The notes under the pieces: generated by a model | Database searches by the model: none | Told to the model about the DNA's origin: nothing | Seen by the model: only the letters and a program-made list of their open reading frames with translations | From: Actinomycetes bacterium | GTDB taxonomy: Bacteria; Actinomycetota; Aquicultoria; Aquicultorales; Aquicultoraceae | DNA length: 64,000 nucleotides | Direction of reading: 5' to 3' | Assembly: GCA_021794835.1 (NCBI GenBank) | Contig: JAJYQA010000027.1 | Location: 1 to 64,000, forward strand | Shown here: one piece after another, positions 33,692 through 45,536 of the stretch | Position numbering within the stretch: position 1 is the stretch's first letter | Layout of the letters: the number at the start of each line of letters is the position of its first letter | Program-made: the position numbers and the translations under genes

Positions 33692-35365
33692 ATGATAACA
33701 GAAAAATCCGATCAAATATTAGCGGAACTGCTTATAAAAAAAGGGGTAATATCAAAAGATATCCTCGCCGGCATTGAGGAGAAGGTCAGCGGTGACCGGT
33801 CTCTTGTCGAGGTCTTAGTAAGCGACGGACTTGTTAATTCATCAGTAATCAGTGAGCTCGTAGGACTTAAAGAATTTAGCTTCGTTGATTTGGAAGATTA
33901 TGATATAGATCCTGCCGCGGTTACCCTTCTGCCCGAGGTATTTGCCAGAAGATACCTCGCCATTCCCATAGATTTCGAAGATCAGAAACTAGTCGTCGCC
34001 ATGACCGACCCCCTAAACGTGCTTATCGCCGACGATCTTCACATGATTACCGGCCACGAAATAAAAGCGGTCGCCGCCCTGGAAAGCGAGATAACCGCCG
34101 CGATCAACCACTACTACAAGGCAACCGAAATAATAAGTGAAGAAGTAAACGGCTTGGGGCCAACGCAGGATCAGGTAGATATAACAAACCTCCGTGCTGT
34201 CTCCGAGGAAGCTCCCGTAATTAAACTGGTAAACACATTAATTCTTAAGGCGATAAACGAGAGAGTTAGTGATATTCATATCGAACCCCAAGAAAAAGAC
34301 CTGCGCGTAAGATACAGGATAGACGGAGTGCTTAAAGAGGTAATGCGCTCGCCAAAGCACGTTCAGGCAGGCATTATATCAAGGCTTAAGATCATGGCCG
34401 GTCTTAATATTGCAGAAACAAGGGTACCCCAGGATGGGCACTGCGATCTCAACGTTTCCGGGAACGTCGTTGATTTTCGTGTGGCGACTCTACCAACAAT
34501 ATATGGAGAACGGGTTGTCTTAAGGATTTTAAGAAAAGAAAGCATTCTGCTCAACCTGGATGATCTCGGGTTTTTGCCAGACAGCCTTGCTAAGTTCAAG
34601 GATTCTTTTAACAAGCCTTATGGGGCAGTTTTGGTAACCGGCCCCACTGGAAGCGGCAAATCTACCACGCTGTACGCAGTATTAAATATCTTAAACAACA
34701 GTGATAAAAATATCATCACCGTGGAGGACCCGGTGGAATACAGGCTGCCCGGCATCAACCAGGTGCAGGTTAACGCAAAAGCAGGCCTAACCTTCGCCAA
34801 GGTGCTAAAGGCGGTTCTTCGAGCATCACCCGATATTGTAATGGTGGGTGAGATAAGGGATAAAGAAACCGCACAAATAGCGATAGAGGCGGCCCTAACC
34901 GGGCACCTGGTACTCTCGACCCTTCACACAAACGATGCGCCAAGCGCAATAAGCCGGCTAACCGAGATGGGAATCGCTCCATTTTTGACATCATCTGCGC
35001 TCGAATGCGTGCAGGCGCAGAGACTTGCCAGGCGTCTTTGCCCCGATTGCAAAGAGGCTTACACACCATCAGTCGATGCGCTTCAAAGGATTGGTTTTCC
35101 GGTAAACGGTAGCGAAAGGATTATACTGTACAAACCTAAGGGCTGTCCAAAATGCAACGACACAGGGTATAAGGGAAGGGTTGGCATATATGAGGTCATG
35201 TCATTTGGTGAGGCCCTTGAGGATCTATGCGTAAAGCGGGCAACGGTTGAAGAGATCAAACACGTAGCTATAGCCGAAGGGATGAAGACTTTAAGGCAAG
35301 ACGGTTATGAAAAGGTAAAGCTTGGCGTTACTTCGCTGGAAGAAATAATGCGGGTGATTGTGTAG
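33692..35365 (+). CDS. pilB: Second PilB-type type IV pilus ATPase
   Basis: A 557-residue paralogue of the preceding PilB with a single N-terminal domain (about 1-150). This starts with the ILAELLIKKGVISKDIL helical pattern typical of MshEN modules. Core motifs: Walker A GPTGSGKSTTLY, GEIRDKETA, STLHTND, and zinc ligands in CPDCKEAY and CPKCNDTGY. The two ATPases are closely similar across the catalytic core (for example ..RSPKHVQ.G.ISR.KIMAGL.IAE), so they look like a tandem duplication with divergence of the front end. Whether they form mixed hexamers or serve different conditions is unknown. Confidence 0.92.
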   Translation: MITEKSDQILAELLIKKGVISKDILAGIEEKVSGDRSLVEVLVSDGLVNSSVISELVGLKEFSFVDLEDYDIDPAAVTLLPEVFARRYLAIPIDFEDQKLVVAMTDPLNVLIADDLHMITGHEIKAVAALESEITAAINHYYKATEIISEEVNGLGPTQDQVDITNLRAVSEEAPVIKLVNTLILKAINERVSDIHIEPQEKDLRVRYRIDGVLKEVMRSPKHVQAGIISRLKIMAGLNIAETRVPQDGHCDLNVSGNVVDFRVATLPTIYGERVVLRILRKESILLNLDDLGFLPDSLAKFKDSFNKPYGAVLVTGPTGSGKSTTLYAVLNILNNSDKNIITVEDPVEYRLPGINQVQVNAKAGLTFAKVLKAVLRASPDIVMVGEIRDKETAQIAIEAALTGHLVLSTLHTNDAPSAISRLTEMGIAPFLTSSALECVQAQRLARRLCPDCKEAYTPSVDALQRIGFPVNGSERIILYKPKGCPKCNDTGYKGRVGIYEVMSFGEALEDLCVKRATVEEIKHVAIAEGMKTLRQDGYEKVKLGVTSLEEIMRVIV

Positions 35366-35416
35366 CCAATAGGATTTAGTATTTTCATTGGCTATTTGGC
35401 TATTGGCTTCTTTTTT
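35364..35416 (+). terminator. Hairpin with T-run between pilB and pilT
   Basis: Arms AGCCAATAG (35364-35372) and CTATTGGCT (35400-35408) are followed by TCTTTTTT. The left arm overlaps the pilB stop. The long loop contains a third ATTGGCT copy, so alternative pairings are possible. It may separate or attenuate pilT expression. Confidence 0.5.
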
Positions 35417-35502
35417 ATTGGCTTAATCAGCCTCAAGTAATCAGCATCAAAGTCCGATATTTAAGGAAATCCCTTTGCAGAAGACATCTGGGAGGTTTTA
35501 AA

Positions 35503-36567
35503 TTGTCCGATATTAATGACCTTCTAATGCAGGTTATCGAGAGGGGGGCATCAGACCTTCACATAACCGCAGGGTCGCCCCCGATGGTTAGACTCCACGG
35601 CGACCTTATGCCGCTAGACTACCATAAACTTACCCCAGAAGATACTAAAGCATTGGTCTGTGACATTATGGATGCAGAGCATAAAGAGCGGCTTGAGCAG
35701 TTCCGAGAATGCGATTTTTCTCATGCACTTGCCGGACAGGGAAGGTTTAGGGTAAATGTGTATTACCAGAGAGGAAGCATCGGGGCTGCTTTCAGGATGA
35801 TACCAATACAAATAAAAACATTAGAAGAACTTGGCCTTCCACAGTCTCTCGAGCTTTTGGCAAGGAAGCCAAGGGGTCTCGTACTGGTTACCGGACCTAC
35901 CGGAAGCGGTAAATCAACAACCTTGGCGTCGCTTATAGACATTATAAACGAGACCAGAGCACACCATATAATGACAATCGAGGATCCAATTGAGTTTCTG
36001 CACCGGCATAAGAAATCAATTGTTAATCAAAGAGAAGTTGGCTCGGATACCAAGTCCTTTGCAAATGCATTAAAGTACGTCCTTCGCCAAGACCCGGACG
36101 TTATCCTGGTCGGCGAGATGCGCGACCTTGAAACTATATCCGCAGCGCTTACCGCTGCCGAGACCGGGCACCTGGTCTTTGCGACGCTTCACACGCAGGA
36201 CGCCCCGCAGACCATAGACAGGATTATCGATGTCTTCCCGCCGCACCAGCAGCAACAGGTAAAGATTCAGCTTGCCGGGACTCTGCAGGGAATTGTCTGC
36301 CAGCAGTTGCTTCCCACAATTGATGGGGCCGGGCGTGTAGTTGCCTACGAGGTTATGCTACCGACTCCAGGTATCCGCAATATGATCCGCGAAGGAAAAA
36401 CGCACCAAATATACAGCGCCATACAGACGGGTCAAAAAAATGGCATGCTAACGATGGACCAGTGCCTTGCCAACCTATATAGACACGGAAGAATATCGTT
36501 CGAGACGGCTGTTATGAAGGCAAGCGATCCAAATGAGATAAAGCAATTGTTGGGTAAAACAGCCTAA
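35503..36567 (+). CDS. pilT: Pilus retraction ATPase PilT
   Basis: A 354-residue retraction motor of full family length. The N-terminal PAS-like domain begins with the ASDLHITAGSPPMVR motif. Then come Walker A GPTGSGKSTTLASL, the Asp box TIEDPIEF, Walker B GEMRDLETI, the His box ATLHTQDA and the C-terminal AIRNLIR-like motif (here GIRNMIREGKTHQ). It disassembles pili, driving twitching and DNA uptake. The TTG start at 35503 has GGGAGG seven bases upstream. Confidence 0.95.
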   Translation: MSDINDLLMQVIERGASDLHITAGSPPMVRLHGDLMPLDYHKLTPEDTKALVCDIMDAEHKERLEQFRECDFSHALAGQGRFRVNVYYQRGSIGAAFRMIPIQIKTLEELGLPQSLELLARKPRGLVLVTGPTGSGKSTTLASLIDIINETRAHHIMTIEDPIEFLHRHKKSIVNQREVGSDTKSFANALKYVLRQDPDVILVGEMRDLETISAALTAAETGHLVFATLHTQDAPQTIDRIIDVFPPHQQQQVKIQLAGTLQGIVCQQLLPTIDGAGRVVAYEVMLPTPGIRNMIREGKTHQIYSAIQTGQKNGMLTMDQCLANLYRHGRISFETAVMKASDPNEIKQLLGKTA

Positions 36568-36611
36568 CAAATATCGAGAACCATGAACGATGAATTAGAC
36601 CGGAGGTCTAC

Positions 36612-37823
36612 ATGGCTACAACATTTTTATACAAGGTAAGAGACGGAAAAGGGAATTTAATAAACGGTCAAATAGACGGTGATGGTGCAACGATGGTTGC
36701 CGGAAAACTGCGCCAGATGGGTTATATCGTTATCGATCTTAAAGAAAAGAGCCTTGCGCAAAAAGACATAACCCTACCGTTTTCAAATAGGGTAAAAACT
36801 AAGGACGTAACGGTATTTAGCCGCCAGTTTGCAACAATGGTGGGTGCAGGACTATCGCTTACCAGGTGTTTAGCTGTTCTCGAAGAGCAAACGCAGAATA
36901 AGGCCCTAAAAGGCATTGTTGGCGAGGTCTTGCAGGATGTTGAGCAAGGCAAGGCCCTGTCGGATGCCATGGCAAAACACCCGAAGGCGTTTCCCCCGAT
37001 ATATATCAATCTGGTAAAGGCCGGTGAAACCGGCGGCGTTCTCGATACTGTTCTTAACCGCGTAGCCGAGCACTTCGAAAAAGAATCATCCATAAAAGGC
37101 AAGATAAAGTCGGCCATGGCCTATCCAACTGCCATGTTTTTCTTTTCGATACTTATAACCTTTGCGCTTATCACCTTTGTTGTGCCGGTGTTTGTCAGCA
37201 TGTTTGCCAGCTTTGGTGGGGATCTACCGCTACCGACCAAGATACTTCTTGGCGCCAGTTCGTTTATCCGGGGATACTGGTTCATACTAGTCCCGGCGCT
37301 TTTTGGCTTAGGCTACGGGCTTAAATATTACGCCGGCACCGATGACGGACGGGCAAGGCTGGATAAGTTAAAACTCAACCTGCCAATTTTCGGCGGGCTT
37401 GTTCGAAAGATGGCCGTATCTCGTTTTAGCCGCACGCTGGGAACGCTTATGGCAAGCGGAGTCCCTATCTTGCAGGCCTTGGATATCGTAGCTGATAGTT
37501 CCGGCAATACCGTTATTGCAGGTGCAGTTAAAAATGCCCGTACGAGTATTAAAGAAGGCGAGACGATATCCAAACCGCTCTCCGAGGACAAGGTATTCCC
37601 GCCTATGGTCGTTCAGATGATAGCTGTCGGCGAAGAAACCGGCGCGCTAGATTCCATGCTAAGCAAGATAGCTGATTTTTACGACGATGAGGTAGCAAGC
37701 ATGGTTGATGCGCTTACCTCTATTATCGAGCCGGTGATGATCCTGGTGATGGGCGGCATAGTCGGCGGCATCATCGTCAGCCTTTACATGCCGATGTTTA
37801 AAGTCATCAGCTTAATCAAGTAA
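36612..37823 (+). CDS. pilC: Type IV pilus inner-membrane platform protein PilC
   Basis: A 403-residue platform protein with two repeated T2SSF domains (about 70-190 and 272-395), each containing a GE(T/E)(G/T)G motif (VKAGETGGVLD and IAVGEETGALD). Membrane segments lie about 170-195, 215-232 and 375-396. It couples the cytoplasmic ATPases to the pilin pool. An ATG start with GGAGGT just upstream. It follows pilT by 44 bases and precedes the pilin. Confidence 0.95.
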   Translation: MATTFLYKVRDGKGNLINGQIDGDGATMVAGKLRQMGYIVIDLKEKSLAQKDITLPFSNRVKTKDVTVFSRQFATMVGAGLSLTRCLAVLEEQTQNKALKGIVGEVLQDVEQGKALSDAMAKHPKAFPPIYINLVKAGETGGVLDTVLNRVAEHFEKESSIKGKIKSAMAYPTAMFFFSILITFALITFVVPVFVSMFASFGGDLPLPTKILLGASSFIRGYWFILVPALFGLGYGLKYYAGTDDGRARLDKLKLNLPIFGGLVRKMAVSRFSRTLGTLMASGVPILQALDIVADSSGNTVIAGAVKNARTSIKEGETISKPLSEDKVFPPMVVQMIAVGEETGALDSMLSKIADFYDDEVASMVDALTSIIEPVMILVMGGIVGGIIVSLYMPMFKVISLIK

Positions 37824-37926
37824 CGTTCCCTGGAATAATCTACTAATTAATTCTAAAGTTTTCCAGCTAGTAACCGATACAATTACTACGAATCCCTATT
37901 AATCGCTTCTACTGGAGGTGAAAAAA

Positions 37927-38310
37927 GTGAAACTATTTCGAAACGAAAAAGGTTTTACCCTCATAGAACTAATGGTCGTAATCCTTATTATCGGCATCTT
38001 AGTTGCCATTGCTATTCCGGTGTATAATACAGCGAGAGATGCTGCCTATCAAAGGACATGCCAGGCTAACTTAAGGACCATGGACGGTGCAATGCAGACC
38101 TATACAGCTGATACAGGCTCAGAGCTTACTCCTTCGGGTGCAATTGCTACAGACAACCAAAACATGACTAATGCTCTCGTGAATGGTGCCTCACAGTATT
38201 TAAAAACTATGCCGCATTGTCCGAAGCCAGGTGCAGCAGCTTATTCATTAACATCTACTGATACGGCTGAGTGCTCCACCTTTGCTAGTGAGGGACATAG
38301 TATTCCGTAA
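37927..38310 (+). CDS. pilA: Type IV pilin, probably the major subunit
   Basis: A 127-residue prepilin. It has a short basic leader, then the class III cleavage site KG/FTLIEL with Glu5 of the mature protein, and a hydrophobic N-terminal helix (VVILIIGILVAIAIPVY). The globular domain is small and has one potential disulfide (Cys near 93 and 110 of the precursor). The GTG start at 37927 is eight bases after GGAGG; an in-frame GTG at 37918 overlaps that site. Two strong hairpins follow its stop, as expected for a highly expressed subunit cut off from downstream genes. Confidence 0.92.
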   Translation: MKLFRNEKGFTLIELMVVILIIGILVAIAIPVYNTARDAAYQRTCQANLRTMDGAMQTYTADTGSELTPSGAIATDNQNMTNALVNGASQYLKTMPHCPKPGAAAYSLTSTDTAECSTFASEGHSIP

Positions 38311-38311
38311 A

Positions 38312-38365
38312 ATAAAGCCACGAGGCTTTATGGACGATGGGCGGCAGATGTTGCCGCCCATTTTG
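38312..38365 (+). terminator. Double hairpin terminator after the pilin gene
   Basis: The first stem is ATAAAGCC/GGCTTTAT (38312-38331). The second is a 10-bp stem ATGGGCGGCA/TGCCGCCCAT (38337-38361) followed by TTTGTT. The second is a convincing intrinsic terminator placed 27 bases after the pilin stop. Confidence 0.8.
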
Positions 38366-38414
38366 TTATATTAACGGTATTCAAGCAGGTTACCATTTAC
38401 CCGATACTAAAAAT

Positions 38415-39221
38415 ATGGAAATTTCTCTTATCATTCTATTCTTTATATTAGGCTTATCTGTCGGCAGCTTCTTAAACGTCTGCGCATATCGGATCCCAAG
38501 AAGGGAATCGATAGCATACCCGCCATCACATTGCCCATCCTGCGGCAATCCCATAAAACAGCTGGATAATATACCATTGCTTAGCTATATCCTATTGAAG
38601 GGCCGCTGCCGTAGCTGCGGCGATAAAATTAGTCTTAAATATCCTGTTATTGAACTATTAACTGGCCTATTGTGGGCCGGGCTTTACCACCATTTTGGCC
38701 TATCCATCCAGCTCATTTTCGGGCTTTTCTTTGCAACCGTGTTGGTTGTGCTCTCGGCTATTGATTATGAGGTAAAGCTGATACCAGATAGAATACTTCT
38801 GCCTGCAATTTTAATTAGTATTGCTTTTCTGATCCTTTATCCGCTAAAAATCGCATCTCTGCCGGTGATTGCCGGGATAAAGCCCTGGTGGGCGATTGGC
38901 GGTTTCTTTGCGGGCGGCGGGTTTTTATACCTTGTCGCCATCCTTGCACCGCTTATATTTAAAAAAGAGGCAATGGGTGGCGGCGATATAAAACTTGCCG
39001 CATTCATGGGCCTTTACCTGGGAGGATATGTCTTCATAGCCCTTTTTGTAGGCTTCTTTTTAGGTGCTGTGGCCGGAGTATTCCTAATGGCGGGGGGTAA
39101 GAGAAGCGCAAAAGACATGATCCCCTTCGGCCCTTTTCTTGCGGCAGGTGCTGTAATCACCCTATTTCTCGGGCCGCAGATGTTGCATGCTTATCTCAGG
39201 ATTGCCGGCCTAGCCCATTAA
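38415..39221 (+). CDS. pilD: Prepilin peptidase / N-methyltransferase
   Basis: A 268-residue polytopic membrane aspartyl protease. The cytoplasmic zinc-binding loop has CPSCG and CRSCG (about residues 37-75). The catalytic aspartates are in SAIDYEVKLIPD and GGGDIKLAAFMG. About seven to eight membrane segments are present. It cleaves prepilin leaders and methylates the new N-terminus. ATG 38415 is chosen because homologues begin just before the first membrane helix; no ribosome site is visible and the frame is open upstream to 38337 inside the terminator. Confidence 0.92.
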   Translation: MEISLIILFFILGLSVGSFLNVCAYRIPRRESIAYPPSHCPSCGNPIKQLDNIPLLSYILLKGRCRSCGDKISLKYPVIELLTGLLWAGLYHHFGLSIQLIFGLFFATVLVVLSAIDYEVKLIPDRILLPAILISIAFLILYPLKIASLPVIAGIKPWWAIGGFFAGGGFLYLVAILAPLIFKKEAMGGGDIKLAAFMGLYLGGYVFIALFVGFFLGAVAGVFLMAGGKRSAKDMIPFGPFLAAGAVITLFLGPQMLHAYLRIAGLAH

Positions 39222-39310
39222 CGCCTTGACATTTTTACCAATTACTAAATATTGCCAGCAAACATGCCGATAACTAAATAAGAGAATATAACTAGAGTAA
39301 AGGGACAGGT

Positions 39311-40447
39311 ATGTTATCGATCCTCAAAAAAGACGAGGGGTATACTGCCGTTTTCTTGGTTTTCATGGTTCTTGTATTGCTTTCAGTCCTCCTCACAGGT
39401 CTTACAGGTCTTTCAGTAACAAGCTACTCACTGGCAAAAACAAAAACCCTGCAAACCGATGCGCTGTATACAGCGGAATCCGGTATAAACTATGCCTTAA
39501 TAAATGCGGCTAATCCTTCATGGCGGCCGGATGGTTCGGTACAAACCGACGTCGAGCCAAATAAGAGTTACTTTAAAGTAAAGGTCAGCGATACTGCCGA
39601 TGGCAAAGTCATGATTACATCGTACGGTTTTGTTAAAGATGTGAATAACGAATGGGTTGAGAGAACAGTAAGAGTTTATGCAGAGAAAGCTATAGCAGAT
39701 GCGTTTCGCTTTGCGCTATTTTCTAACTCAAACACAGCAATGTCGGGAAACTCGACAATCCATAACGGTGATATGCATGTAAACGGGTCTGTCACACTTA
39801 GCGGCAACCCACAGATCGATGGTAAGCTTGAAGCGACAGGCTCGATCTTTAAGTCTGGTAATCCAAAAGTTGAAGACGGTATTTACCCAGGATCGCAACC
39901 GGTATCAATGCCGTCAATTGATTCAAATAGCTATCTGGCGAAAGCACAAGCCCTCGGAACTATAAACGGAAACGTTGTTGTTAGCGGTAACAATTCGGTA
40001 ACACTCAAGGGCTATATTAACGGTAATCTTTCTATCAGCGGCAACGCTCCCATTACGATCGACACTATTGTGTACGTGGGGGGCAGCGTTTCCATTTCCG
40101 GTAATATTAAGGTTTCCGGAAACGGTGTCATTATTGCGAACAACAATATAGCGGTCTCCGGAAATATTGAGTATCTGGCTGGCGATGAAGGGAAACTTGC
40201 CTTTATCTCGTTAGCTTCAGGCGGCGGCGCTATTTCTATATCAGGTAATCCCAGCATTGATGGGTTAATCTACGCGCCGAACGGAACCGTTAATATTTCA
40301 GGAAACCCCGATGTGCTTGGCGGGCTTGTTGCTGACGGCGTTAATCTTTCAGGTAATCCCACGATCACGCGCGATCCCGAGATCAATAGCCTGGTCGACG
40401 TTTTACCCGGTAATCTGCTTAAAGTTGTTTTCTGGCAGGGGATGTAA
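39311..40447 (+). CDS. PilX-like pilus protein with SGN-repeat beta-solenoid
   Basis: A 378-residue protein. The N-terminus resembles PilX-type minor pilus components: a charged leader, DEGYTAVFLV, one long hydrophobic helix (about 12-38), then ALYTAESGINYALINA. From about residue 140 it contains eleven SGN tripeptides, mostly as (V/I/L)x(I/L/V)SGN(P/x) spaced about 10-40 residues apart and often followed by I(D/N)G. The short alternating hydrophobic strands and Gly/Asn turns suggest a beta-helix, rather like bactofilins. It lies directly before two minor pilins and is probably exposed on the pilus or cell surface. Function unknown. Confidence 0.8.
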   Translation: MLSILKKDEGYTAVFLVFMVLVLLSVLLTGLTGLSVTSYSLAKTKTLQTDALYTAESGINYALINAANPSWRPDGSVQTDVEPNKSYFKVKVSDTADGKVMITSYGFVKDVNNEWVERTVRVYAEKAIADAFRFALFSNSNTAMSGNSTIHNGDMHVNGSVTLSGNPQIDGKLEATGSIFKSGNPKVEDGIYPGSQPVSMPSIDSNSYLAKAQALGTINGNVVVSGNNSVTLKGYINGNLSISGNAPITIDTIVYVGGSVSISGNIKVSGNGVIIANNNIAVSGNIEYLAGDEGKLAFISLASGGGAISISGNPSIDGLIYAPNGTVNISGNPDVLGGLVADGVNLSGNPTITRDPEINSLVDVLPGNLLKVVFWQGM

Positions 40448-40864
40448 ATGATTAATCCCAAATTCCGCTTAAAAAAACTAATGAGATGCGAATCAGGCGT
40501 TATTTCTATAGCCGAGATATTGGTTGCTTCGTCGTTGCTGTTATTGGTTGCAGCGGGCACGTTAAATGGATTAATCTTTTCTGCCGATACAACGGCGCGC
40601 ACCAACAGCGTAGTTATTGCAGGGGCGGTTCTGCAAAAGGAGATCGAGGCTGTAAAAACGCTTGGTAGCAATGTAACGGGTGAAGCCTACCATCAGGTGT
40701 CTTACGCCCCGCAATACGGGGTGGAAAGGGTGGTTGCAACGGACAGTCCGCAGGCCGGGATCGATAAGGTGACAGTAAATGTCTATAAATATCCTAAGGC
40801 CGATGGCGACCTGCCGCTAGCTGAGCTTTCGTTTTACGTCAAACAGGATGGAAGTGGCGTATGA
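40448..40864 (+). CDS. Minor pilin, PilV-like
   Basis: A 138-residue protein with a prepilin-like N-terminus (CESGVISIAEILVASSLLLLVAAGTL). This has Gly at the cleavage point and Glu at the fifth mature position, although the leader motif is less classical than in the major pilin. A short beta-rich C-terminal domain follows. It starts on the base after the upstream stop, and its own stop overlaps the next ATG (ATGATGG), so the three minor components are coupled. Probably part of the pilus-initiating tip complex. Confidence 0.75.
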   Translation: MINPKFRLKKLMRCESGVISIAEILVASSLLLLVAAGTLNGLIFSADTTARTNSVVIAGAVLQKEIEAVKTLGSNVTGEAYHQVSYAPQYGVERVVATDSPQAGIDKVTVNVYKYPKADGDLPLAELSFYVKQDGSGV

Positions 40865-42375
40865 TGGTACCATCTCTCTGGCGGTTCATAGTTAAAAACC
40901 AGAACGGTTTTATTAGTATAGTTGAGCTACTGATAGGTCTAGCACTTTTAGGCGTTATTATTGGCGGTGGTTACACACTTCTTGGGCTGGGATATCAGAT
41001 TGATTCGAGTGTTCAGGAAAGGACAGACCTTCAGAAACAAGCGCAGACAGTGCTGAACCAAATGGCCGACGACATACGCACGGCAAAAGAAATAAAAGAT
41101 GCGGAAACCGACCGTGTTGCTTTTATAGATGCACTCAATAACGCGAAGTGCTATTATTTGCAAGGCAACCAGCTCATGATGGCGCTAAATAACTCTTATA
41201 CCGGTGGGTCTATACAAATGAACGGCATATCGTCGCTATCATTTTCGTACGAAAAAGATAGCGGTGTCTTGGCCTCTAGTGCGGCAGAGGCCAAGACTGT
41301 GCTTATTGCTTTAACGGCCCAAAGCCTAAAAGATAGCAAAATAACCATCTCGCTCAATGGTGAGGCTAAGCTTAGAAATTTTGGTGTTGATACAGTGAGC
41401 CTACCAAAAGTAACGTTTACATTTGAGAGCTATCCCCTAGATGGGGAAACGCCGCCCAACCGCGCTGTTATCGGAGGTCCGAACTCCCAGTATAATTCGT
41501 ATCTTTCTGGGGGGATACCTGTTGTTTTAACGGCAAGCGATGCAGAGGAGATTATAGGAGTTAAATATTACGTGGCAGGGCTTATCTTAAGTGATGGGAA
41601 CTACACCCCATCTCCGCCGCAAACCTCGGTCAGTCCTCCTACATATTACTGGTATCCTTTGCAAATGAACGGTTCAAGTAGAGTATGGCCGGACGGCACG
41701 TATAAGTTCAAAGTGGAAGCAACCAGTGAAGACGGTTTCGTGGGAAGCAGCTACGTTTATTGGACTATAGATAACGATCCTCCTGCCTGGGATGATACCC
41801 AGCCTGCTGACCTGACGGCCATGGCTAATGATGCGACAGGTATCTTACTAAGCTGGCAGGCGGCAAGGGATGGTATCGACCAGGTTGACCACTACAGCGT
41901 GTATCGAAAGGATTTAACGATGCAAGAGGCTGATTTTACGACAATTCAAGATGACACCTACACACCCTCGCTGAATTACAACGATTCGAATGTTGTTGCC
42001 TGGCATACGTATTCGTATTATATTAAGGCGGTCAGCCCCGGAGGAAGACTTTCGGTTTTACCAAGTAATACAGTAACCGTGACAATGCCTTTTAGTATCA
42101 CGGCCACATCGTATATAGAAAGCAGCAAGTACAAGGTTGATATAACATGGAACGCGCCTCCCAGCGGAATCAACGTTGAGTACTATAAACTGTTTAGAAA
42201 CGGAGTGCAAGTTACAACGATACCATCGCCAATCCCCGCTTCCGCTATAAAATGCACCGATGATAACGGCGGCCTTGGGCTACAAAGCGGATCCACTTAT
42301 GAATACAAACTGCAAGCGTATAATAGCCAAAATAATTTGGTTGGTGAGAGTTTCACGTTATCGATTACGATCTGA
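40861..42375 (+). CDS. Large PilW-like minor pilin with two fibronectin type III-like domains
   Basis: A 504-residue protein. It has a prepilin-type N-terminus (NQNGFISIVELLIGLALLGVIIGGGYTLL), a PilW-like middle (about 40-170), then an Ig-like segment (about 215-305) with NGSSRVWPDGTYKFKVEA and two FN3-like domains. The first of these is LTAMANDATGILLSWQAA...YSYYIKAVS, about 312-400; the second is KVDITWNAP...YEYKLQAYN, about 405-500. The added extracellular modules make it a candidate tip adhesin. It follows the PilV-like gene with overlap. Confidence 0.78.
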   Translation: MMVPSLWRFIVKNQNGFISIVELLIGLALLGVIIGGGYTLLGLGYQIDSSVQERTDLQKQAQTVLNQMADDIRTAKEIKDAETDRVAFIDALNNAKCYYLQGNQLMMALNNSYTGGSIQMNGISSLSFSYEKDSGVLASSAAEAKTVLIALTAQSLKDSKITISLNGEAKLRNFGVDTVSLPKVTFTFESYPLDGETPPNRAVIGGPNSQYNSYLSGGIPVVLTASDAEEIIGVKYYVAGLILSDGNYTPSPPQTSVSPPTYYWYPLQMNGSSRVWPDGTYKFKVEATSEDGFVGSSYVYWTIDNDPPAWDDTQPADLTAMANDATGILLSWQAARDGIDQVDHYSVYRKDLTMQEADFTTIQDDTYTPSLNYNDSNVVAWHTYSYYIKAVSPGGRLSVLPSNTVTVTMPFSITATSYIESSKYKVDITWNAPPSGINVEYYKLFRNGVQVTTIPSPIPASAIKCTDDNGGLGLQSGSTYEYKLQAYNSQNNLVGESFTLSITI

Positions 42376-42541
42376 TAAAAAATCATCCCGGCAAGGGGTT
42401 GGAATTATCTAAAGTCTTTCTGTTTTTATCCGATTATTTATAAAGATACTGCTTGGGCCGTAAAAAGACTGGCAGTAACGCCCCGTCCTAAATGTAGAAG
42501 CGAAGATGCTGTATTTGCGTTTTAAATGCAGGAGGTAGGTT

Positions 42542-43693
42542 TTGGGATTTTTTAGCCTGGGCAAAGGGGTTGCTCCTGTTGGTTTAGATATCAGCGGAAA
42601 TATATTTAGGGTTGCTCAACTTAAGCCATCTGCAGATAAACCAGTCCTCGTAAATTATGCCAGTTTAAAAGCTCCTTTAGGCCTTACAAACGAAGGTGAG
42701 ATTTCGGATATCGATGGCGTTGCCAAGGCACTTGCTGCATTTTGGCGCGCGCAAAGGATATCTGAGAAGAAGGTTGTTGTGGGACTGGCCAACCAGAAGG
42801 TAATCGTAAGGGTTATTGAGATGCCTTATATGACCGAGACGGAACTAAGAAGCGCCATTAAGTTCCAGGCCAATGATTATATTCCAATTCCTATAGAAGA
42901 AGCGATCGTTGATTTTCAGATAATCTCCGAGCACGAAAATGATGAGGGCGAGAAAATGATAGACATTCTTATCGTGGCCGTGCGTAGGGATATGGTGGAG
43001 AACCTGATTAGTGCCGTGACGGGGGCGGGGCTTAAACCAGTTGTCATTGATGTGTCATCGCTGGCATTTGCCAGGGCGGTCATGGGCAACGACGTTAGGC
43101 CGGTTATTGAAGAGTTACCGGACCACTTAGGCGCAACCGCCCTAATCAATATTGGTTCAAACCTCACGGATATTGTGGTTATCGAGGATGAGATTCCCAG
43201 GTTTACCAGGATCAGCAACGTTGGAGGCGATACATTTACCAATGCATTGGTCGACCAGATTGGGATATCATTTGAGGATGCGGATTACTTAAAGACAGGA
43301 ATCGGTCTTCCTGCGGTTGAGGGGATCGAAAATGACGAGGACGTTATGGAACCAGCCATACCTTCCGAGATACAGCAATACGTTGACGTGGTAAGAAACG
43401 TCCTAGAGCAAGAAATGATTAAGTTTATAGCCGAAGTTAGAAGGTCTTTGGATTACTATCTCGTGCAGGCCATGAAGGCAAAAAGTATAGACAAGGTGAT
43501 CGTTTCAGGTGACGGGGCTAAGCTAAGGAGTTTTCTCAGCCACCTAAGAGAAAACCTGCAGATAGAGGCCGAGCTGGCGCACCCGCTTCGCAGCGTGCAG
43601 GTGGGCAAGAAGCTTAGCGAGACAAACATTGAAAGCGAGGAGCTTTCAATGGCCATTTGCCTGGGCCTTGCAATGCGGGGGATAGAAAAATGA
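42542..43693 (+). CDS. pilM: Type IV pilus assembly ATPase-fold protein PilM
   Basis: A 383-residue actin/FtsA-like protein. PilM nucleotide-binding motifs are visible: VGLDISGN-type phosphate 1 (PVGLDISGNIFRVAQL), NIGSNLTDIVV and a C-terminal VIVSGDGAKL. It sits at the inner membrane and binds the N-terminal tail of PilN, linking the motor to the periplasmic or outer components. The TTG start at 42542 has AGGAGG six bases upstream. Its stop overlaps the pilN ATG. A 166-bp gap separates it from the minor pilins; nothing clear is seen in it. Confidence 0.93.
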   Translation: MGFFSLGKGVAPVGLDISGNIFRVAQLKPSADKPVLVNYASLKAPLGLTNEGEISDIDGVAKALAAFWRAQRISEKKVVVGLANQKVIVRVIEMPYMTETELRSAIKFQANDYIPIPIEEAIVDFQIISEHENDEGEKMIDILIVAVRRDMVENLISAVTGAGLKPVVIDVSSLAFARAVMGNDVRPVIEELPDHLGATALINIGSNLTDIVVIEDEIPRFTRISNVGGDTFTNALVDQIGISFEDADYLKTGIGLPAVEGIENDEDVMEPAIPSEIQQYVDVVRNVLEQEMIKFIAEVRRSLDYYLVQAMKAKSIDKVIVSGDGAKLRSFLSHLRENLQIEAELAHPLRSVQVGKKLSETNIESEELSMAICLGLAMRGIEK

Positions 43694-44283
43694 TAAAGAT
43701 TAGAATCAACCTTCTTCCGGGAGAAATTAAAGATAAGCAAAAAGTAGAGAAGTTTATGGTTATGGCGATTCTTGGAATTGCGTTAGTAGTCGGATTACTT
43801 GGCGGGCTGTACGCATATAATGCGTGGAAGATTAAGACAGCGGAAGACAAAGTTGCGCTGCTACAGAATGAAACAGAAAAAATAAACCGATCTATCCAGT
43901 CACTTCGAGTCTATGAACAAAAACTTAAAGATGTTCAGATAAAGAAGCAGATACTGCAGCAGGCGATAAGTGGCCAGGTTGTTTGGTCGAAAATACTAGA
44001 GGAGTTAATGGTTGTAACTCCTGATGATGTCTCGTTAACGTCGCTTTCGGGTAACTCTGACGGCATAACCTTTAACGGCCAGGTGCCTGATCTGGGTGGT
44101 AATCCCGATACGGGACACAAGCCGGTGGCAGATTGGCTTGTGCATCTGGCCCAAATTAATCCCACGCCGGAGGTATGGCTAATCTCGTCAGAAAAACAAA
44201 AAAATACCGTCAATTTTATAAGTACTTTGAAGTTTAAGAATTCGTCGGTGCCTCCCGCCCCGCCCCGCCCTTCCGGGAAGTGA
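43690..44283 (+). CDS. pilN: Type IV pilus assembly protein PilN
   Basis: A 197-residue bitopic membrane protein. It begins MIKIRINLLPGEIK, the conserved PilM-binding INLLP motif, followed by a membrane helix (about 22-43), a coiled coil (50-90) and a small ferredoxin-like periplasmic domain. The ATG at 43690 overlaps the pilM stop. The C-terminus ends in a Pro-rich tail. It pairs with PilO in the alignment complex. Confidence 0.9.
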   Translation: MIKIRINLLPGEIKDKQKVEKFMVMAILGIALVVGLLGGLYAYNAWKIKTAEDKVALLQNETEKINRSIQSLRVYEQKLKDVQIKKQILQQAISGQVVWSKILEELMVVTPDDVSLTSLSGNSDGITFNGQVPDLGGNPDTGHKPVADWLVHLAQINPTPEVWLISSEKQKNTVNFISTLKFKNSSVPPAPPRPSGK

Positions 44284-44287
44284 TGGT

Positions 44288-44905
44288 ATGGATAAAATAG
44301 CTACTAAAAAGCAAATCTTAATATTGGTTGGAGTTTTGGTCGTGATGCTGGTCGCATTCTTCATGCTCGTATGGAGGCCACAGAGCAACCGGATTACAGG
44401 CCTGGAGAACCAGCGTTCTGCTGAAGAGATCAAGCTACAAACCGCCAAGACAACGCTTGCCATGCTCGAGGAAGATAAGCAAAATACCGCCGAGGCCGAG
44501 GCCGAGCTTGTAAAGCTTAAAAAGCAAATACCGATGAAGCCCAAGTTGCCGGAGATTGTAGACCAGTTACAAGGTATGGCAAACGATGCCGGAGTTAATC
44601 TGGTTTCAATCAAACCCAGTAATGTTGCGGTCAAAGGACAGTTCGGCGAGCTACAAGTAAACATCACCATAGAAGGAAGCTACACAGCCCTAGTGGACTT
44701 CTTAAGTAGGATAGAGGGATCACAAAGAACGTTTAAGACCTCGTCGATTAATATAAAGGTAAAAAGCTATCCTGACCTTACAATGAACGCTAGTCTGTCA
44801 GCATTTGTCATGGAAAGCAATGAGTCTTCGACGACGGCACCGGTGAAAGTGTCAGCTATGGGTACGGCAAACAGCCGGAGTGTAGCAGTAAATAGCAGTA
44901 AATAA
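44288..44905 (+). CDS. pilO: Type IV pilus assembly protein PilO
   Basis: A 205-residue bitopic protein with a membrane helix (about 10-30), a coiled coil (35-80) and a C-terminal domain with the PilO pattern (VDQLQGMANDAGVNLVSIKP, then IEGSYTALVDFLSRIEGSQR). It forms heterodimers with PilN. It starts four bases after the pilN stop. Confidence 0.9.
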   Translation: MDKIATKKQILILVGVLVVMLVAFFMLVWRPQSNRITGLENQRSAEEIKLQTAKTTLAMLEEDKQNTAEAEAELVKLKKQIPMKPKLPEIVDQLQGMANDAGVNLVSIKPSNVAVKGQFGELQVNITIEGSYTALVDFLSRIEGSQRTFKTSSINIKVKSYPDLTMNASLSAFVMESNESSTTAPVKVSAMGTANSRSVAVNSSK

Positions 44906-44921
44906 ATAATTGGGGATGCAT

Positions 44922-45536
44922 ATGGGAGCTGGGACAAAATCATCGAGAGTAAATGTAAGAGAGCTGATTAAGACACCTAAGGGCAAGGGGATAGCTGCCG
45001 GCTTAGCTTTGGTGCTGCTGGTTTTAGCTGTCCTAATGGCCATGATTTTTGCATTTCCAAGGTTAAACAACCAGCCTTTGCAACCGCCTAAAGCTTATGT
45101 GGCAAAAAATAGCCCAGGTAGCACTACGTCAACGGCCCAGGCTGGCCAGGCAACTGCGCCGCCTACAACCACAACCGATACCGCCGGCATCATCTCAGTA
45201 AAGAGCGATCTGTCCGATTATAGAGACCCGTTTGAACCGATTGCAGTAGCCACCAGCTCAGCTAACAGTCCTGCGGCTGGAGGGGCAACCAGCAGCGATA
45301 GCCAAAGTGGGTCGAGCGTAAGCTCAGTCAATGTCTTATCACTAGAAAGCATAACAACCGTAAATGGAGTTAGAAGTGCTATCGTGCTTTACCGAGGACA
45401 GCAGTATACCGTAAAGACAGGGGATCAGATCGATAGCTCACCGTTTCAGGTAACCGATATCGGTGAGAGCAATATAAGTTTGCTTTATGGCGAATCAAGG
45501 CTGACACTGCAGGTGGGAGATACTATTGTGAAGTAG
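44922..45536 (+). CDS. PilP-like pilus protein
   Basis: About 204 residues. It has a cytoplasmic N-terminal tail, one membrane helix (about 24-46), a long Thr/Ser/Ala/Gln-rich linker (50-145) and a C-terminal beta domain (about 148-204) with the pattern GVRSAIVLYRGQQYTVKTGDQI..F.V..I, as in PilP or GspC-type HR domains. There is a DYRDPFEP motif ahead of it, as in PilP. Gene order after pilO supports PilP. Unlike Gram-negative PilP it has a membrane helix instead of a lipobox. The start at 44922 has GGGG six bases upstream; TTG 44910 is possible. Confidence 0.78.
   Translation: MGAGTKSSRVNVRELIKTPKGKGIAAGLALVLLVLAVLMAMIFAFPRLNNQPLQPPKAYVAKNSPGSTTSTAQAGQATAPPTTTTDTAGIISVKSDLSDYRDPFEPIAVATSSANSPAAGGATSSDSQSGSSVSSVNVLSLESITTVNGVRSAIVLYRGQQYTVKTGDQIDSSPFQVTDIGESNISLLYGESRLTLQVGDTIVK

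What the first reader, a model, noticed from the sequence alone, without database searches (positions are those of the whole stretch)
39311..40447. Pilus-locus protein built from SGN-centred repeats
A PilX-like N-terminus is joined to a domain with eleven SGN tripeptides in short hydrophobic strands, predicting a beta-solenoid similar to bactofilins but outside the cell. I know of no named family for this combination. It may be a tip, spacer or adhesin component.
Basis: partly seen in the sequence, partly recalled or inferred. Interest (0 to 1): 0.6.

Follow-up and report, generated by a model that had tools for sequence, protein, structure and literature searches.

The report
Pilus-tip solenoid protein, swapped-in cassette
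This gene encodes a spiral-folded cap protein that probably sits at the tip of a bacterial type IV pilus, resembling the known DNA-catching tip protein ComZ; its most notable feature is that it belongs to a three-gene tip cassette that has replaced the usual one in this lineage.

Summary
In detail: ORF 39311-40447 (378 aa) has exactly 11 SGN tripeptides, mostly 17-20 residues apart; the most in 100,000 shuffles was 6. AlphaFold2 predicts a long pilin helix, a pilin-type sheet, a confident beta-solenoid (residues 136-355) and a C-terminal strand. It is not a bactofilin.

The host is a Candidatus Aquicultor relative. In its family this operon slot (between pilD and pilM) normally encodes a different trio ending in a ~480-aa ComZ-like PilX. 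Here DNA similarity to a same-genus genome stops at 39181 and resumes at 42409. The inserted trio matches a free-standing cassette in three genomes of another family of the class, and the fibronectin-III module sits on a different pilin than in relatives.

Best explanation: a Glu5-less cap of the minor-pilin priming complex, presenting a solenoid at the pilus tip. Ligand unknown. A new member of a known kind with a good cassette-exchange story; moderate interest.

The parts
39311..40447 (+). SGN protein: PilX/GspK-like minor prepilin with beta-solenoid (DUF7305), 378 aa
39311..39340 (+). Prepilin leader MLSILKKDEG; mature N-terminus YTAVF, with no Glu at +5
   Evidence: sequence; the position is likewise not Glu in relatives
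39335..39688 (+). Predicted pilin helix (residues 9-65) and pilin-type sheet (strands 74-126)
   Evidence: AlphaFold2 model; helix start and residues 30-40 low confidence
39716..40375 (+). Predicted beta-solenoid, residues 136-355, with the 11 SGN tripeptides
   Evidence: (pLDDT mostly 88-96)
40061..40387 (+). DUF7305 (PF23981) match, residues 251-359
   Evidence: 55.8 bits, cut-off 27
40418..40441 (+). C-terminal strand (residues 370-377) with Trp375, invariant across the 12 aligned family members; possibly the last strand of the pilin sheet, as in ComZ
   Evidence: strand pairing not inspected
40448..40864 (+). pp2, 138-aa minor prepilin; start codon directly follows the SGN gene's stop
   Evidence: 43-46% identical to the second gene of the free-standing cassette
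40861..42375 (+). pp3, 504-aa minor prepilin: GspJ/PilW-like N-terminal part plus C-terminal fibronectin-III region; overlaps the pp2 stop (ATGA)
41404..42372 (+). fn3-containing module of pp3 (residues 182-504), 31-39% identical to the C-terminal part of a different minor pilin in Aquicultor relatives
39182..42408 (.). Segment without DNA similarity to same-genus genome G002, flanked by 78% and 77% identical DNA: the exchanged minor-pilin cassette
33692..39221 (+). Upstream operon: PilB, PilT, PilC, major pilin, PilD (prepilin peptidase)
   Evidence: conserved order in relatives
42542..45536 (+). Downstream operon: PilM, PilN, PilO, PilP
   Evidence: conserved order in relatives

Best explanation
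The protein is a modular minor pilin: a prepilin-type membrane helix and pilin sheet carrying a beta-solenoid module. After PilD cleaves the short leader, it pairs with the next two prepilins (pp2, pp3) to form a GspK-GspI-GspJ-like priming complex. That complex starts pilus assembly and ends up at the filament tip, with the solenoid protein as the cap because it has no Glu5. The solenoid then acts as the exposed receptor or adhesive surface, and PilT retraction would pull in whatever it has bound. Shown by computation: operon position, leader, absence of Glu5, solenoid fold prediction, ComZ as best structural match, and replacement of the lineage's own trio. Inferred: tip location, complex formation, ligand binding. 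DNA is the most concrete ligand candidate, because the genome has ComEA and ComEC and no second prepilin locus was found, but a surface polymer or another cell is equally open.
For: Operon PilB-PilT-PilC-pilin-PilD-[SGN-pp2-pp3]-PilM-N-O-P, with SGN/pp2/pp3 start and stop codons abutting or overlapping. AlphaFold2: helix, pilin strands, solenoid, terminal strand (pLDDT 82, pTM 0.67). Foldseek: ComZ is the top hit, E 5.1e-7, probability 1.00, then DUF3494 ice-binding solenoids; the ComZ paper likened ComZ's own solenoid to an ice-binding protein (PMC6561018). The operon-equivalent PilX of Aquicultor relatives, homologous to the SGN protein by profile comparison (98.8%, E 4.5e-17, 355 columns), matches ComZ more strongly (E 1e-12). 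Mature N-terminus YTAVF lacks Glu5; T4P tip complexes are capped by a subunit lacking Glu5 (PMC10191384), as for GspK and PilX (PMC7541494). pp3's N-part matches the ~190-aa pilin of relatives (98.0%, E 1.8e-13). The genome holds ComEA and ComEC over cut-off, and the other PilB-type ATPase has no prepilins beside it.
Against: The structural match to ComZ is local: TM-scores only 0.27/0.22 and rmsd 14.7 A, and no profile search finds ComZ significantly (not at all; best E 0.057 and 0.12). pp2 is not specifically matched to the GspI-like pilin of relatives. The solenoid region is acidic (10 K+R against 17 D+E), which gives no positive support to DNA binding. No experiment.
Confidence: 0.72

Rival explanations
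1. The solenoid is mainly structural: a spacer or plug at the tip that sets diameter or primes assembly, with the fn3 module of pp3 or another protein doing the binding.
For: pp3 carries an fn3 domain (40.4 bits), a common binding or spacer module. The solenoid is very regular, with no obvious insert resembling a binding site. GspK's extra domain has unclear function (PMC8179133).
Against: Family members differ strongly in length and sequence (378-526 aa, 22-24% identity to the SGN protein), which fits ligand diversification better than a fixed structural part. ComZ's equivalent protein binds DNA (PMC6561018).
Confidence: 0.2
2. A competence-specific DNA receptor, a true functional equivalent of ComZ (a narrower version of the best explanation).
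For: ComZ is the top structural match. ComEA and ComEC are in the genome, and no second prepilin locus was found beside the other PilB-type ATPase.
Against: ComEA/ComEC are widespread and prove no competence. Sequence relation to ComZ is not significant. Solenoid acidic. The gene lies in the main pilus operon, not a separate competence locus.
Confidence: 0.3
3. A bactofilin-like polymer-forming protein displayed outside the cell.
For: Sub-threshold Pfam bactofilin match (15.5 bits), 21.8 bits in a relative.
Against: Below the 27.9-bit cut-off; the 50 listed structure matches contain no bactofilin; pilin N-terminus and operon argue for a pilus subunit.
Confidence: 0.04
4. The trio is an ordinary fast-evolving vertical copy of the Aquicultor trio, not an exchanged cassette.
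For: SGN and PilX are homologous. GC content of the trio is not unusual. The 48-49% identity to the other family's cassette protein is close to that family's PilM identity (45-46%), so the event is not shown to be recent.
Against: Gene order differs (PilX-like gene first here, last in relatives). Flanks are 77-78% identical DNA to G002 while the trio has none. G001 and G002 trios are 66-70% identical to each other but the SGN protein is only 22-24% identical to theirs. The free cassette keeps the window's gene order, with 43-49% identity in the first two genes and 31-34% in pp3's N-part.
Confidence: 0.1

Closest known systems
ComZ of Thermus thermophilus (PDB 6qvi; PMC6561018)
   Same: Best structural match; pilin helix and sheet plus large beta-solenoid; gene next to other minor pilins; solenoid resembles ice-binding solenoids in both.
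   Different: No significant sequence relation; solenoid here about 220 residues against about 380; SGN-regular; in the main pilus operon; DNA binding untested; local rather than global superposition.
DUF7305 (Pfam PF23981)
   Same: Sequence match over cut-off; weaker DUF7305 matches are found in the operon-equivalent PilX of several relatives.
   Different: Only residues 251-359 are covered; the N-terminal part of the solenoid lies outside the match.
GspK / PilX tip minor pilins (PF14341 PilX_N)
   Same: Helical N-terminus of PilX type, no Glu5, co-encoded with GspI/GspJ-like prepilins.
   Different: PilX_N score below cut-off here; the inserted domain is a solenoid rather than GspK's helical domain.
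Alternative minor-pilin/PilY1 clusters of Myxococcus xanthus (PMC7541494)
   Same: Alternative minor-pilin sets served by one pilus machine and proposed to give different tips; the f5 genomes here likewise hold two sets.
   Different: No PilY1-like gene seen in the cassette; here one set has replaced the other at the same locus.
Modular pilins of Streptococcus sanguinis (PMC8179133)
   Same: Functional module grafted on a pilin and presented by the filament; fn3 on pp3 is of this kind.
   Different: Different modules; S. sanguinis PilB keeps Glu5.

Membership tests
DUF7305 (PF23981) | Profile score over the curated cut-off | tested here: met
   55.8 bits, cut-off 27
PilX_N (PF14341) | Profile score over the curated cut-off | tested here: not met
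   15.2 bits, cut-off 25.5; relatives 21.3 and 23.4, also below
Bactofilin (PF04519) | Profile score over the curated cut-off | tested here: not met
   15.5 bits, cut-off 27.9
Bactofilin (PF04519) | Structure match to solved bactofilins | tested here: not met
   None in the 50 listed matches
Type IV prepilins | Leader ending in Gly followed by about 20 hydrophobic residues, beside a PilD-type peptidase | tested here: met
   MLSILKKDEG/YTAVFLVFMVLVLLSVLLTGL; pilD is the gene upstream
GspK/PilX-type tip pilins | No Glu at +5 of the mature protein | tested here: met
   +5 is Phe; also not Glu in relatives
GspK/PilX-type tip pilins | Forms a complex with GspI/GspJ-like partners at the filament tip | not testable with these tools
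   Partners are co-encoded; complex not tested
ComZ | Fold: pilin domain with beta-solenoid | tested here: met
   Prediction; Foldseek E 5.1e-7, probability 1.00, TM-score low
ComZ | Solenoid inserted between the last two strands of the pilin sheet | tested here: inconclusive
   Strand order fits (terminal strand 370-377); pairing not inspected
ComZ | Significant sequence homology | tested here: not met
   Best E 0.057, 0.12; absent
ComZ | Binds DNA, needed for transformation | not testable with these tools
   No experiment; solenoid net acidic

The most novel reading that the evidence does not exclude
Pilus tips in Aquicultoria are plug-in parts: whole minor-pilin trios are exchanged as cassettes at the pilD-pilM slot or kept as spare sets elsewhere, and binding modules such as fn3 move between pilin scaffolds during the exchange, so one pilus machine acquires a new tip with a new ligand in one step.
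Probability: 0.4. Interest if true: 0.55.

Novelty: new member of a known kind. Interest (0 to 1): 0.38.

Why it matters
It gives a Pfam domain of unknown function (DUF7305) a concrete, testable role as the solenoid module of Glu5-less, ComZ-like pilus-tip pilins, and extends that architecture to the Aquicultoria, whose type IV pili no paper in the searched library mentions. The clean replacement of the whole trio beside conserved pilus genes is a natural experiment in how tip specificity evolves.

Tried and rejected
Genome-contig search with the SGN protein found no relative; the scan with PilC was used instead to name the host lineage. tblastn against plasmids and phages: no match, so no sign of a mobile-element origin. 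GC and GC3 of the trio are not anomalous, so composition does not support a recent transfer. The fn3 tree could not place the window's module: its branch is long and most forks are open, so the module's origin is undecided. pp2 could not be assigned to one pilin type by profile comparison. Bactofilin interpretation rejected. No paper in the library mentions DUF7305 or Aquicultor pili. The native trio was not found elsewhere in the genome, with the caveat that the assembly is 97.8% complete.

Full report
Observation. The ORF 39311-40447 encodes 378 residues with 11 SGN tripeptides, mostly 17-20 residues apart; shuffled versions of residues 129-378 average 0.50 and never exceed 6 in 100,000. Synonymous codons vary between copies, so the repeat is maintained at protein level. 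Hydrophobic periodicity peaks at 6, 12, 18 and 20 residues, as expected for a triangular solenoid. The gene is single copy in its genome.

Family. Pfam DUF7305 matches residues 251-359 with 55.8 bits against a cut-off of 27; PilX_N (15.2 against 25.5) and bactofilin (15.5 against 27.9) do not reach theirs. So a named family exists, though its function is unassigned and no paper in the library mentions it.

Fold. AlphaFold2 on a four-sequence alignment (48-49% identity) gives pLDDT 82 and pTM 0.67: helix 9-65, strands 74-126, solenoid strands 136-355 at mostly 88-96 pLDDT, and a last strand 370-377. Foldseek against the PDB puts ComZ of Thermus first (E 5.1e-7, probability 1.00) and ice-binding solenoids next. 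ComZ is a pilin with a beta-solenoid inserted between its last two strands, is argued to sit at the pilus tip, binds DNA, and its solenoid was itself likened to an ice-binding protein (PMC6561018). TM-scores are low (0.27/0.22), so the match is of local structure and domain order rather than a rigid superposition, and sequence profiles do not connect the two significantly.

Surroundings. The host is a Candidatus Aquicultor relative: PilC matches named Aquicultor records at 73-76%, and an unnamed record that is apparently same-genus genome G002 at 88%. The operon is PilB-PilT-PilC-pilin-PilD-SGN-pp2-pp3-PilM-N-O-P. In nine same-family genomes examined, the PilD-PilM slot carries, where complete, an fn3-bearing pilin, a ~190-aa pilin and a ~480-aa PilX-like protein, in that order. 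That PilX is homologous to the SGN protein (profile probability 98.8%, E 4.5e-17), and its own AlphaFold2 model hits ComZ at E 1e-12. So a ComZ-like pilin is the standard occupant of this operon slot.

Cassette exchange. DNA similarity between the window and G002 of the same genus is 78% up to 39181 and 77% from 42409 on, with none between. The SGN protein's only close relatives in a sample of 396 genomes of the phylum are in three genomes of another family of the class (f5). There SGN, pp2 and pp3 stand as a free three-gene cassette beside an nrdR-like gene, not beside pil genes, while those genomes also keep a conventional trio in their pil locus. The window has the free cassette's gene order. 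Its pp3 is a fusion: residues 10-173 match the cassette's 171-aa protein (32-34%) and the ~190-aa pilin of relatives, while residues 182-504 match the C-terminal region of the fn3-bearing pilin of relatives (31-39%). No other sampled genome has a match to both parts in one protein. Composition gives no sign of recent transfer, so donor and date are open.

Mechanism. The mature N-terminus YTAVF has no Glu at +5; T4P priming complexes are capped by a subunit without Glu5 (PMC10191384), as GspK and PilX are (PMC7541494). With two co-encoded prepilins that do carry a Glu at about that position (+6 in both), the SGN protein fits the cap of a GspK-I-J-like tip complex. The genome has ComEA and ComEC, and its other PilB-type ATPase has no prepilins beside it, so DNA uptake is possible but unproven; the solenoid is acidic. 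Tip location, complex formation and ligand are inference.

Comparison. Works like: ComZ and GspK-type tip pilins. Member of: DUF7305. Not a bactofilin. Alternative minor-pilin sets under one machine are known from Myxococcus (PMC7541494), and modules grafted on pilins from Streptococcus (PMC8179133). The new elements are the SGN-regular solenoid and the in-place exchange with a relocated fn3 module.

Verdict. Observation confirmed; interpretation partly supported. A new member of a known kind, moderately interesting for its evolution.

Noticed in passing
L060:6872-9073 (-) and L057:9177-11447 (-): Two large proteins (733 and 756 aa) in f5 genomes, not beside pil genes, combine bactofilin-type and DUF7305-type solenoid matches with bacterial Ig-like domains: the same solenoid on non-pilus proteins.
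   Followed up: partly
L116:3831-10637 (-): A 2268-aa protein in G017 with a match to the SGN solenoid and four SGN tripeptides.
   Followed up: no
L048, L063, L113: Several Aquicultor-family pil operons carry an extra pair of ORFs of about 670 and 215 aa between the major pilin and pilD, absent from the window.
   Followed up: no
L139:3221-4939 (-): An orphan PilB/GspE-type ATPase in the window's genome without prepilin genes nearby.
   Followed up: partly
L042:7847-9247 (-), L044:11302-12507 (-): In f5 genomes the SGN cassette follows a gene resembling calcineurin-like phosphodiesterases (YfcE family, 52.4 bits, just under cut-off, in G029).
   Followed up: no
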